Shown here: positions 6,061 to 13,520 of the stretch, one piece after another
How positions within the stretch are numbered: position 1 is the stretch's first letter
Layout: each line of letters opens with the position of its first letter
NCBI GenBank assembly: GCA_001798135.1
Contig: MGRJ01000001.1
Span: 1 to 39,870, forward strand
Length of the DNA stretch: 39,870 nt
DNA from: Deltaproteobacteria bacterium RIFCSPHIGHO2_02_FULL_40_28
GTDB taxonomy: Bacteria; UBA10199; 2-12-FULL-40-28
Direction: 5' to 3'
Notes under the pieces: model-generated
Told to the model about the DNA's origin: nothing
The model's input: the letters and a program-made list of their open reading frames with translations, nothing else
The model's database searches: none
Program-made: the position numbers and the translations under genes

Positions 6061-6089
6061 GGTGCCAAACTATCCTTAAAGAGTTTTTG

Positions 6090-6395
6090 ATGCAAATCTT
6101 TCTTGATCCTCAAGGAGAAAAGAGTAGTCTTAAAGTTATGAGACATTTTGGCCCAATTGCTTTTCTTTTTTTGATGCTCATCAACAATAGCAGAGAAAAT
6201 TATACGGTTAAAATTGGGGATCATACAACAACCATTAAGGCCAGAAGCATTGTCGAATATTTCCCGCCCAAATTAAAAAGCCCCGTGGACATTTTTATTT
6301 CTAAAACCATAAAGAAAACTGAAAATGTTTGGGAATGTAAGGTTAAAAGGGGTCGTAACGATGTGTTTGTTTTTCCAAACGAATGCCCAAGATAA
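6090..6395 (+). CDS. Hypothetical protein, 101-102 aa
   Basis: Not recognised. An ATG at 6090 is preceded in frame by TTG at 6087; the ATG is preferred. A hydrophobic run (FGPIAFLFLMLI, about residues 20-31) may be a transmembrane segment or an internal signal. The rest alternates hydrophobic and charged residues (YTVKIGDHTTTIKARSIVEYFP, FISKTIKKTENVWECKVKRGRNDVFVF), a pattern expected of a beta-sandwich. No Shine-Dalgarno site is evident. Its reality rests on composition and on having no better overlapping frame; it could be spurious. Confidence 0.45.
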   Translation: MQIFLDPQGEKSSLKVMRHFGPIAFLFLMLINNSRENYTVKIGDHTTTIKARSIVEYFPPKLKSPVDIFISKTIKKTENVWECKVKRGRNDVFVFPNECPR

Positions 6396-7396: not shown

Positions 7397-8248
7397 TTAA
7401 TGTCTCGATTGATTTTGATTTTCTTTAAAGAATTTTTCAAAATTTCTGAGGGCTGTTTGTGCATACGACATAATGGCCGAGTTGGATTCTTCGTTTGCAG
7501 TTTCTACCACTTTTTTCAAAGCCATTTTGTAATCTTCTAAAAAGAATGGAAAGCGCTGATCAGAAATTTCTACAAGTTTGGAAGGATTCATGGTGCTTAG
7601 GGCCACAGTTGCCAAGTATTTTTGGCGATCGGAACGATACAAAAGTGGCAGTAGGTGGTTGAGTAAACAACGGCCTCCAATTTTTCCTAGAGAAAGAGCC
7701 GCTGCGTATTGATAATCATAAACAGCCTTTTTATCCCCCGATTCATGGCGATGTTCTAAAGACATCAATAGTGGAATAATGGCAGCTCCCGCCAAGCAAC
7801 CAAATTCACCAATAGCCATGGCCGATTCTACCTTTAATTCACTCCCAGTGGGGGCTAATTCAAAAGATTCAATGAGATAAGGAAGCACTTCTTCGGGTCT
7901 GGATTTAAAATGCACTACAATTTCTCGAAGTGCATTAATTTTGTTAGCATCGGGGATGTGTTTTTTAGTGAGATGTTTTAAAAGATATTCGCGACGAATT
8001 AAGTTAAGGTGTTCGTAATCAATAGGTTCATCGGGAGAGAATTTTTTGCGCCAGATTTCTAAATAGGTTACTTCATCTGAATCAATCACATGATCTTTCA
8101 AGGCATATACCAAGCCCACTACAAAACGTTTGACGGCATTTGGATAATCTTTGCCTTGAAGGATATGAAAACCATCATCTTCAGAAAGGCCTTCAGGATC
8201 TTGAATAGCTTCTTCAATTTTCTTTAGAAGTTCTTGCAATGAAAACAT
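7397..8248 (-). CDS. HEAT-repeat-like helical protein
   Basis: About 283 residues, all predicted helical. The N-terminal third (EELLKKIEEAIQDPEG type acidic helices) is of unknown type. From about residue 100, paired helices such as ALREIVVHFKSRPEEVLPYLIES, SAMAIGEFGCLAGAAIIPLL and AAALSLGKIGGRCLLNHLLPLL read like HEAT/PBS-lyase repeats, which usually mediate protein contacts. It has no signal peptide, so it is cytoplasmic. Two ATG codons are possible, at 8260 and 8248; the inner one is preferred because GGGGTGG precedes it and MFSLQELL starts a helix. It stands alone between the DnaA-box region and the histone gene. Partner unknown. Confidence 0.75.
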   Translation of the reverse strand: MFSLQELLKKIEEAIQDPEGLSEDDGFHILQGKDYPNAVKRFVVGLVYALKDHVIDSDEVTYLEIWRKKFSPDEPIDYEHLNLIRREYLLKHLTKKHIPDANKINALREIVVHFKSRPEEVLPYLIESFELAPTGSELKVESAMAIGEFGCLAGAAIIPLLMSLEHRHESGDKKAVYDYQYAAALSLGKIGGRCLLNHLLPLLYRSDRQKYLATVALSTMNPSKLVEISDQRFPFFLEDYKMALKKVVETANEESNSAIMSYAQTALRNFEKFFKENQNQSRH

Positions 8249-8518
8249 GGTCCACCCCATGAATTAAAAATTGTAATAACTGCCCCAAATTAAAGTTACT
8301 GCAATCAATGTGCCAATAAATTATGAAAATCTATATTTTAAGTATATGAAATTATTAATTATTTTAAATTTATAAAAGGTAAACTCAAAAAAATGGGGCC
8401 TTAAAACCTCAAAGCAAGCAAAGAAAAAAGCAGATTGGGGAGTTTTTACTGGCAGGAAATAAGTATTTTCTTTATGAATGCAAGAAGGCTTTTTTAAAAC
8501 AAAAATGAAAGGGGATTT

Positions 8519-8713
8519 ATGGCAGAAGTTTTAGTTGTTGCATCCAAAATTAAGAAACTTATCAAAGAAAAGGGGGATTGCAATACCTCTTCTTCTACAA
8601 TGGAAGCTCTTTCAGAGAGGCTCCACAAACTCATCGAAAAAGGTATCGAAAATGCCAAGGCTGATGGTCGAAAAACAGTGATGGATCGTGATATTCCTAA
8701 CTTAGGGATATAG
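8519..8713 (+). CDS. Bacterial histone-fold DNA-binding protein
   Basis: A 64-residue protein that is essentially one minimal histone fold: short helix 1 (EVLVVASKIKKLIKE), loop, central helix 2 (SSTMEALSERLHKLIEKGIENA), and helix 3 with the typical GRKTVMDRDIPNL motif (R52/K53/T54 by count), the RKTV..RD(I/V) sequence seen in archaeal histones and in bacterial histones of Bdellovibrio and Leptospira. As remembered, the Bdellovibrio histone begins MAEVLVV.SKVKKLIKEK and ends ADGRKTVM.RDI, which is nearly the same. Such proteins bind and bend DNA as dimers. The ribosome-binding site is strong (AAGGGGAT, five bases before ATG). The AT-rich upstream 260 bases probably hold its promoter. Confidence 0.92.
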   Translation: MAEVLVVASKIKKLIKEKGDCNTSSSTMEALSERLHKLIEKGIENAKADGRKTVMDRDIPNLGI

Positions 8714-8777
8714 CCTCTTTTGACAATCAGTGAGGTATCTGGTAATCTCACCCTTCATCTTAACTAAAGGAGTAGTC

Positions 8778-9914
8778 ATGAAGCGTCTTTTTTTGGGATT
8801 TGTTATCCTCACAAGTTTTCTTTTTGTTCTTCCTCAATGTCAAAAAATTCAAGAACTCAAAAATAAATTTTTAAAAAGTGATCAAAAGGCCGATCCTTTT
8901 GTGGAAACCACAAAGGATGCAGCTCCTATATCCGAGGCAGCCCCTGTGGCAGAGCAGGTTATACCTCCCACTTCTGATGCAGGGGTTTTAGGACGGGTGA
9001 ATGGGGAAGCCATTACTGATGCCCAAGTGTACGATTATGTAAAAGATCGCCTGAAAAAATTAGAATCCCAAATATTTGAAATTAAACGCGGTGGTCTATC
9101 TGAACTCATTGAGAAAAAGTTGGTAGAAACTGAAGCAACAAAACGGGGTGTAAGTATTGACGATCTTTTAAAATCTGAAGTTACTTCCAAAGTGGAAGAA
9201 CCCAGCCAGCAAGATTTAGAAACTTATTACTCTGTTTTTAAAAATCGTTTCAAAAACCAACCCCTCGCTGAAGTAAAAGGCGTTTTAATTCAGCAACTCA
9301 AATCAACCAGAGAAAAAACTCTCTATGATAATTTTTTAGCAGGCTTAGAAAAAAATTCCACGGTAGAAGTTTTAATGAAGCGGCCCAGAATAGAGGTTTC
9401 TGTGGATGATGATCCGTCACAAGGGCCTAAAGTTGCACCAATTACACTCATTGAATTTTCTGATTTTCAATGCCCCTTTTGTAAAAGAGCCAGAGAAACT
9501 GTTTCTAAAATTATGGAAACCTATAAGGGAAAAGTGCACTATGTATTCCGTGATTTTCCACTTTCCTTCCATAAACAAGCAGGCAAAGCTTCAGAGGCCT
9601 CCCAATGCGCACATGATCAAGGCAAGTATTGGGAATACAATGCCAAGCTTTGGGAAACTCAAGGGCAACATGAAATAGATGCTCTTAAAACGATGGCTAA
9701 GGGTTTGGGATTAGATACGGTCAAGTTTAATCAGTGTTTGGATTCTGGTAAGTTTACTGCAGAGGTTGAAAAAGATGCTCAGGATGGTGTAAATGTGGGT
9801 GTGAGTGGAACGCCTGCTTATTTTATCAATGGCATTTTTCTTTCGGGAGCACAACCTTTTGAAAATTTTGCACAAATTATCGATGAAGAACTTCGGGAAA
9901 TTGAGAAGAAATAA
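8778..9914 (+). CDS. DsbA-like thioredoxin protein with SurA-N-like region
   Basis: The start at 8778 is chosen because GGAG lies 9 bases upstream and MKRLFLGF begins a signal peptide; an upstream in-frame ATG at 8730 is rejected. After a hydrophobic stretch a cysteine at residue 21 (LPQC) may be lipidated, though the lipobox is poor. Residues about 65-200 resemble the N-terminal chaperone region of SurA/PrsA proteins (LGRVNGEAITDAQVYDYV, LIEKKLVETEATKRGV). Residues about 220-375 are a DsbA/BdbD-type thioredoxin fold with the active site CPFC (232-235) and cis-proline segment SGTPAYFING (P346). Expected role: disulfide chemistry in the periplasm with a client-binding arm. It faces a CsbD-like gene tail to tail with no spacer. 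Confidence 0.85.
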   Translation: MKRLFLGFVILTSFLFVLPQCQKIQELKNKFLKSDQKADPFVETTKDAAPISEAAPVAEQVIPPTSDAGVLGRVNGEAITDAQVYDYVKDRLKKLESQIFEIKRGGLSELIEKKLVETEATKRGVSIDDLLKSEVTSKVEEPSQQDLETYYSVFKNRFKNQPLAEVKGVLIQQLKSTREKTLYDNFLAGLEKNSTVEVLMKRPRIEVSVDDDPSQGPKVAPITLIEFSDFQCPFCKRARETVSKIMETYKGKVHYVFRDFPLSFHKQAGKASEASQCAHDQGKYWEYNAKLWETQGQHEIDALKTMAKGLGLDTVKFNQCLDSGKFTAEVEKDAQDGVNVGVSGTPAYFINGIFLSGAQPFENFAQIIDEELREIEKK

Positions 9915-10127
9915 TTATTCGAGTGAATTAATAAACCTTTGTAGTTTATTGCGGGCCTTGGCTTCTTCAAAAGGGAAATTATTGTAATATTCCTTAAGAT
10001 ATTCTAAGAATTTATCAAAATCACCATTGATGTCTTCAACCGTTGTTTCCGATAAAAGAGGCCATTCATGATGGATGAATTTTTTTACTGATTCCCAGTG
10101 GTCTTGCATTCGGTTTGGAGTTGTCAT
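9915..10127 (-). CDS. Small CsbD-like stress protein
   Basis: A 70-residue acidic-basic helical protein. HWESVKKFIHHEWPLLSETTVEDINGDFDKFLEYL recalls the CsbD family pattern 'W.q.kGk.ke.WgkLtddDl..i.Gk.d.L.g.l', small stress-induced proteins of unknown biochemical role. Its stop directly abuts the stop of the DsbA-like gene, and its start lies 14 bases from the ilvD start on the other strand. No ribosome-binding site is evident before the first ATG. Real by composition and family resemblance; function unknown. Confidence 0.65.
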   Translation of the reverse strand: MTTPNRMQDHWESVKKFIHHEWPLLSETTVEDINGDFDKFLEYLKEYYNNFPFEEAKARNKLQRFINSLE

Positions 10128-13313: not shown

Positions 13314-13520
13314 CTAATTAGAATCAGTATCGAGTACTGTAAAAGAAGTAACAAAATCGAGATCTAGTTTTACAGTATCTTTTCCATCAGAAATTTGCAC
13401 AAAACCTTTTTCGTGATCAATGTTTAAAATACTCCCTATATAGGAAGCACCATAAGCTACAATTTGCACTTCTTTTCCTAAATACTCATCGAGGTTATTA
13501 AGAGATTGTTCAACGTTCAT
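13314..13520 (-). CDS. Small Sm/SH3-like barrel protein
   Basis: A 68-residue protein starting MNVEQSLNNLDEYLGKEVQIVAYG. After a short helix come about five strands: EVQIVAYG, ASYIGSILNID, GFVQISDG, DTVKLDLDFVTSFTVLD. Helix-then-five-strands at this length is the layout of Sm-like (Hfq/LSm) and small SH3 barrels. The Hfq signature motifs are absent, so RNA binding should not be assumed. AGGGG precedes the ATG at a good distance, which supports it as a real gene. Divergent from the DUF4416 gene. Confidence 0.68.
   Translation of the reverse strand: MNVEQSLNNLDEYLGKEVQIVAYGASYIGSILNIDHEKGFVQISDGKDTVKLDLDFVTSFTVLDTDSN

What the first reader, a model, noticed from the sequence alone, without database searches (positions are those of the whole stretch)
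8519..8713. Bacterial histone gene
The protein is a bare histone fold with the RKTV..RD motif and closely resembles the Bdellovibrio histone. Bacterial histones are recently characterised and unevenly distributed; a strong ribosome-binding site suggests good expression. It may shape this genome and, with the SWIB-like protein, suggests chromatin-style packaging.
Basis: partly seen in the sequence, partly recalled or inferred. Interest (0 to 1): 0.72.

Follow-up and report, generated by a model that had tools for sequence, protein, structure and literature searches.

The report
HBb-type bacterial histone gene
This is a genuine bacterial histone gene, a close relative of the already-characterised Bdellovibrio histone HBb, carried by an uncultured bacterium that also encodes two other types of histone and the usual bacterial HU/IHF proteins; it is a solid new example of a known kind rather than a new system.

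Summary
The gene is real. Window 8519-8713 (+) encodes a 64-aa protein that matches Bdellovibrio HBb/Bd0055 (PDB 8fvx, 8cmp) at E=8e-20, 40/59 identical. A predicted monomer (pLDDT 89) returns five HBb chains as its best PDB matches. Nine of the ten DNA-contact residues reported for HBb, its D49-R51-D58 salt-bridge set and its dimer core are kept (T8 is Ala). The tetramer residues of face-to-face (FtF) histones are absent, so it files as a 'bacterial dimer' alpha3 histone. Its likely job is to act as a sequence-independent, DNA-bending homodimer in the nucleoid. That is inferred from HBb and was not shown here.

The genome also encodes an FtF-type and a ZZ-type histone, plus four HU/IHF genes. 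In the window's phylum, 40 of 46 held genomes (27 of 29 good ones) carry an alpha3 histone, and all 46 carry HU/IHF. Histones therefore add to HU here and do not replace it.

The SWIB link fails: no SWIB domain is found in this genome, although the same search finds one in 22 of 60 genomes searched. Flanking genes are not conserved beside orthologues. Verdict: a new member of a known kind, with modest interest.

The parts
8519..8713 (+). CDS of a 64-aa 'bacterial dimer' (HBb-type) alpha3 histone, stop included
8508..8514 (+). Shine-Dalgarno-like AAAGGGG, 4 bases before the ATG
   Evidence: sequence; predicted pairing -8.1 kcal/mol, rank 5 of 34 window genes
8261..8518 (+). A+T-rich divergent intergenic region that should hold the histone promoter; consensus scan finds no promoter above chance
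8730..8751 (+). weak hairpin after the histone stop (7 pairs, 3 G-C, poor T tail), possible terminator

Best explanation
The gene encodes an orthologue of HBb (Bd0055), a 'bacterial dimer' histone of the alpha3-truncated family. The protein most likely forms a homodimer through antiparallel alpha2 helices. It likely binds the phosphate backbone of the minor groove without sequence preference, through the first turns of alpha1 (S9, K10, K12, K16) and loops L1/L2 (N22, S24, K52, T53, R57), and bends DNA as HBb does. It would act as a nucleoid-associated protein beside HU/IHF and two other histones. Shown here: sequence and predicted fold agreement with HBb, conserved DNA-contact and dimer residues, lack of the FtF tetramer residues, purifying selection, near-universal histones in the phylum, and coexistence with HU/IHF. 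Inferred from HBb: dimerisation, DNA bending, abundance and essentiality.
For: PDB sequence search: 8fvx/8cmp at E=8e-20 over residues 1-59, 40/59 identical. AlphaFold model pLDDT 88.8 with a short 3-residue alpha3; Foldseek top five are all HBb chains (9f0e, 9ezz, 8fvx, 8cmp), E 1.6e-5 to 6.5e-5, TM 0.74-0.82, followed by HLp and HTkC. Nine of ten HBb DNA-contact residues, D49/R51/D58 and the hydrophobic dimer core are kept (residues from PMC11317129). Among 36 dimer-type sequences S9, K10, R51, K52, T53, R57 and D58 are invariant. A tree separates FtF histones from dimer+ZZ with 100/98 support and puts the window protein with same-order orthologues. dN is far below saturated dS.
Against: No expression, binding or oligomer data exist for this protein. 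T8, the fifth most DNA-contacting residue in the HBb simulations, is Ala here. The protein is only mildly basic (pI about 8.9, net charge about +1.6 at pH 7). Four HU/IHF genes and two other histones could make it dispensable. The model is a monomer, so the dimer was not tested.
Confidence: 0.9

Rival explanations
1. It is a face-to-face (FtF) histone that forms tetramers and wraps about 60 bp of DNA, like HLp of Leptospira perolatii.
For: Same alpha3 family; HLp is the next best solved structure by sequence and by fold.
Against: The FtF tetramer residues R49, N53 (HLp numbering) align with N45 and D49 here. The tree puts all FtF sequences, including this genome's own FtF paralogue, on the other side of a 100/98 branch. 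The HBb match is about 14 orders of magnitude better by E-value.
Confidence: 0.04
2. It is a specialised or minor DNA-binding protein (a local regulator, or active in only one growth state) and not a major chromatin component; HU/IHF does the bulk packaging.
For: Four HU/IHF genes in this genome, and HU/IHF in all 46 phylum genomes. Two other histone genes in the genome. No conserved gene neighbours.
Against: HBb itself coexists with HU and IHF in Bdellovibrio and is still abundant and probably essential (PMC10627809, PMC11390915). The dimer type is widely kept (21 of 46 phylum genomes) and under strong purifying selection.
Confidence: 0.25
3. It is a non-coding ORF or an assembly contaminant from a Bdellovibrio relative.
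For: Resemblance to Bdellovibrio HBb at 68% identity.
Against: Nearest relatives are same-order genomes (75-81%), not Bdellovibrio. Codon-level purifying selection. Genome contamination 0.03%. Gene starts and lengths agree across orthologues.
Confidence: 0.01

Closest known systems
HBb / Bd0055 of Bdellovibrio bacteriovorus (PDB 8fvx, 8cmp, 9ezz, 9f0e)
   Same: Length, 68% identity over 59 aa, short alpha3, RD clamp with D49, 9 of 10 DNA-contact residues, dimer core, no FtF tetramer residues.
   Different: T8 is Ala (as in most relatives in this phylum); different C-terminal tail (PNLGI against a common IIDHI in Bdellovibrionota); host is an uncultured, different lineage.
FtF histones: HLp of Leptospira perolatii (9qt0), HTkC of Thermococcus
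   Same: alpha3-truncated histone fold.
   Different: Lacks R49/N53 tetramer contacts; separate clade. This genome's other histone at G000:C6:64786-64953 belongs here instead (HLp E=1.5e-18).
ZZ histones (ZZ-type zinc finger plus dimer-like histone domain; Schwab et al. 2024)
   Same: Related histone domain.
   Different: The window protein has no zinc-finger extension. The genome's third histone (151 aa, G000:C27:89317-89487) has a Cys-rich N-terminal part and fits this type.
HU/IHF (PF00216)
   Same: Presumed role: small DNA-bending nucleoid protein.
   Different: Unrelated fold; four HU/IHF genes are present separately in this genome.

Membership tests
alpha3 'bacterial dimer' histones (HBb type) | single histone fold with alpha3 cut to about one turn | tested here: met
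   (helices 2-19, 25-48, 56-58)
alpha3 'bacterial dimer' histones (HBb type) | sequence clusters with HBb rather than FtF | tested here: met
alpha3 'bacterial dimer' histones (HBb type) | conserved alpha1 lysines and RKT...D motif with RD clamp | tested here: met
   K10, K12, K16, R51-K52-T53, D58
alpha3 'bacterial dimer' histones (HBb type) | homodimer in solution, sequence-independent DNA binding and bending | not testable with these tools
   no dimer prediction or wet assay available; known for HBb (PMC11317129)
FtF histones | tetramer residues R49, N53, R55 (HLp numbering) | tested here: not met
   positions are N45, D49, R51 in the window protein; met by the paralogue L007
ZZ histones | N-terminal ZZ zinc finger | tested here: not met
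   ORF starts at the histone fold
archaeal nucleosomal histones | full-length alpha3 and score over the archaeal histone model | tested here: not met
   NF043032 32.9 bits against a cut-off of 50; short alpha3

The most novel reading that the evidence does not exclude
This uncultured lineage runs a layered histone chromatin: a DNA-bending dimer histone, a DNA-wrapping FtF tetramer and a zinc-finger ZZ histone together in one cell, alongside four HU/IHF proteins. The three histones would share labour or even form heterodimers, in a phylum where histones are close to universal and not sporadic as in most bacteria.
Probability: 0.25. Interest if true: 0.55.

Novelty: new member of a known kind. 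Interest (0 to 1): 0.3.

Why it matters
Only about 1-2% of bacterial genomes surveyed carry histones (PMC10627809, PMC11390915). A bacterial phylum in which 27 of 29 good genomes carry one, always with HU/IHF, is a useful comparison group for asking what histones add to bacterial chromatin. A genome with three alpha3 types at once could help test division of labour between bending, wrapping and zinc-finger histones. The window gene alone is an expected orthologue.

Tried and rejected
SWIB partner: searched the whole genome, absent, with positives in other genomes of the set. Operon or functional link with neighbours: none of 15 neighbouring window genes recurs next to an orthologue at 1.5-5 kb flanks, even in the same order. 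Viral origin: none of the IMG/VR contigs was found to encode a relative; only a weak PHROG match, E=0.02. RNA element or tRNA near the gene: none. Promoter: consensus scan not above shuffles. A paper search for histones in candidate phylum UBA10199, my unverified guess for the lineage, found nothing.

Full report
WHAT IS THERE. Window 8519-8713 (+) is an ATG-initiated ORF of 64 codons: MAEVLVVASKIKKLIKEKGDCNTSSSTMEALSERLHKLIEKGIENAKADGRKTVMDRDIPNLGI. An AAAGGGG sequence at 8508-8514 precedes the ATG. Its predicted pairing with a generic anti-Shine-Dalgarno sequence (-8.1 kcal/mol) ranks 5th of 34 window genes, but 6% of random window 20-mers do as well. The gene upstream is divergent and HEAT-like (7397-8260, -). 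Downstream is a secreted or lipoprotein-like DsbA/thioredoxin-domain protein (8778-9914, +). A weak hairpin lies between them (8730-8751).

IT IS A HISTONE. In sequence searches of the PDB the best hits are the two construct sequences of Bdellovibrio HBb/Bd0055 at E=8e-20, aligned over residues 1-59. The next hits are HLp (9qt0, 6.6e-6) and HTkC (9f2c, 2e-5). Pfam places it on DUF1931 (over cut-off) and CBFD_NFYB_HMF (just under). An AlphaFold2 model built from 36 dimer-type sequences has mean pLDDT 88.8 and the short one-turn alpha3 typical of alpha3 histones. Foldseek ranks five HBb chains first, then HLp and HTkC.

WHICH KIND. Residues reported for HBb (PMC11317129, read) were checked one by one. 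DNA contacts S9, K10, K12, K16, N22, S24, K52, T53 and R57 are kept, and T8 is Ala. D49, R51 and D58 (RD clamp and its support) are kept. The dimer core L31, L38 and I59 is kept, with V11I and I35L. The FtF tetramer residues R49 and N53 of HLp (PMC12701072) correspond to N45 and D49, so that test is not met. In a 35-row tree the FtF sequences form one side of a 100/98 branch. The window protein lies with the HBb-type rows, closest to orthologues from the same order, and the ZZ rows nest within the dimer+ZZ side. Many inner forks are unresolved because only 61 columns exist. By the published scheme (PMC11390915) it is a 'bacterial dimer' histone.

SELECTION AND SPREAD. Against same-order orthologues, synonymous sites are saturated and dN is 0.13-0.21. 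In the window's phylum (46 held genomes, all of one class), 40 carry at least one alpha3 histone, and 27 of the 29 with completeness at least 90% and contamination at most 5% do. I sorted the hits by the R...N.R motif and by the ZZ-type histone domain signature (GRKTVMG), giving 21 genomes with the dimer type, 24 with FtF and 9 with ZZ-like; some of these are fragments at contig ends. Outside the phylum the dimer type appears in Bdellovibrionales genomes and in Chlamydiota. No relative was found in viral contigs. I could not name the phylum.

THREE HISTONES AND FOUR HU/IHF IN ONE GENOME. Besides the window gene, the same genome has an FtF histone (C6:64786-64953; HLp E=1.5e-18, R...N.R present) and a 151-aa ZZ-type histone with a Cys-rich N-terminal part (C27:89317-89487). 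The ZZ finger was read from the CxxC pattern and from agreement with relatives; Pfam gave no match. The genome has four HU/IHF genes, and HU/IHF is present in all 46 phylum genomes, so histones accompany HU here. Only one other genome in the phylum set (G007, with a fragmentary ZZ) shows all three histone types.

WHAT IT LIKELY DOES. By homology with HBb (abundant, nucleoid-localised, probably essential, DNA-bending dimer; PMC10627809, PMC11317129), the protein is most likely a DNA-bending nucleoid protein. Whether it is abundant in this organism, and how it shares work with HU and its paralogues, is open.

WHAT FAILS. PF02201 has no match in the genome, while the same search matches 22 of 60 genomes in the relatives set. 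No neighbouring gene is conserved beside the histone, so neighbours give no functional hint.

VERDICT. A real, well-conserved HBb-type histone: a new member of a known kind. The modest extra interest lies in the phylum-wide persistence of histones and in three alpha3 types together in one genome.

Noticed in passing
L006:1498-1953 (-) = G000:C27, outside the window: Second histone of the same genome: 151 aa, Cys-rich (two CxxC) N-terminal part plus HBb-like histone domain; fits the ZZ-histone type, though Pfam gives no match.
   Followed up: partly
L007:1498-1758 (-) = G000:C6, outside the window: Third histone of the same genome, FtF type, closest solved relative HLp of Leptospira perolatii.
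   Followed up: partly
phylum set, e.g. L068 and L069: SWIB-domain genes occur in about a third of the genomes searched (22 of 60) but not in the window's genome; patchy gain or loss worth a look.
   Followed up: partly
window 8778-9914 (+): A DsbA-like thioredoxin domain (PF13462) joined to an N-terminal SurA-like segment with a lipoprotein-like signal; a possibly unusual domain pairing directly downstream of the histone.
   Followed up: no
window 9915-10127 (-), 13314-13520 (-), 6087-6395 (+): Small ORFs with no Pfam match at E<=0.01.
   Followed up: no
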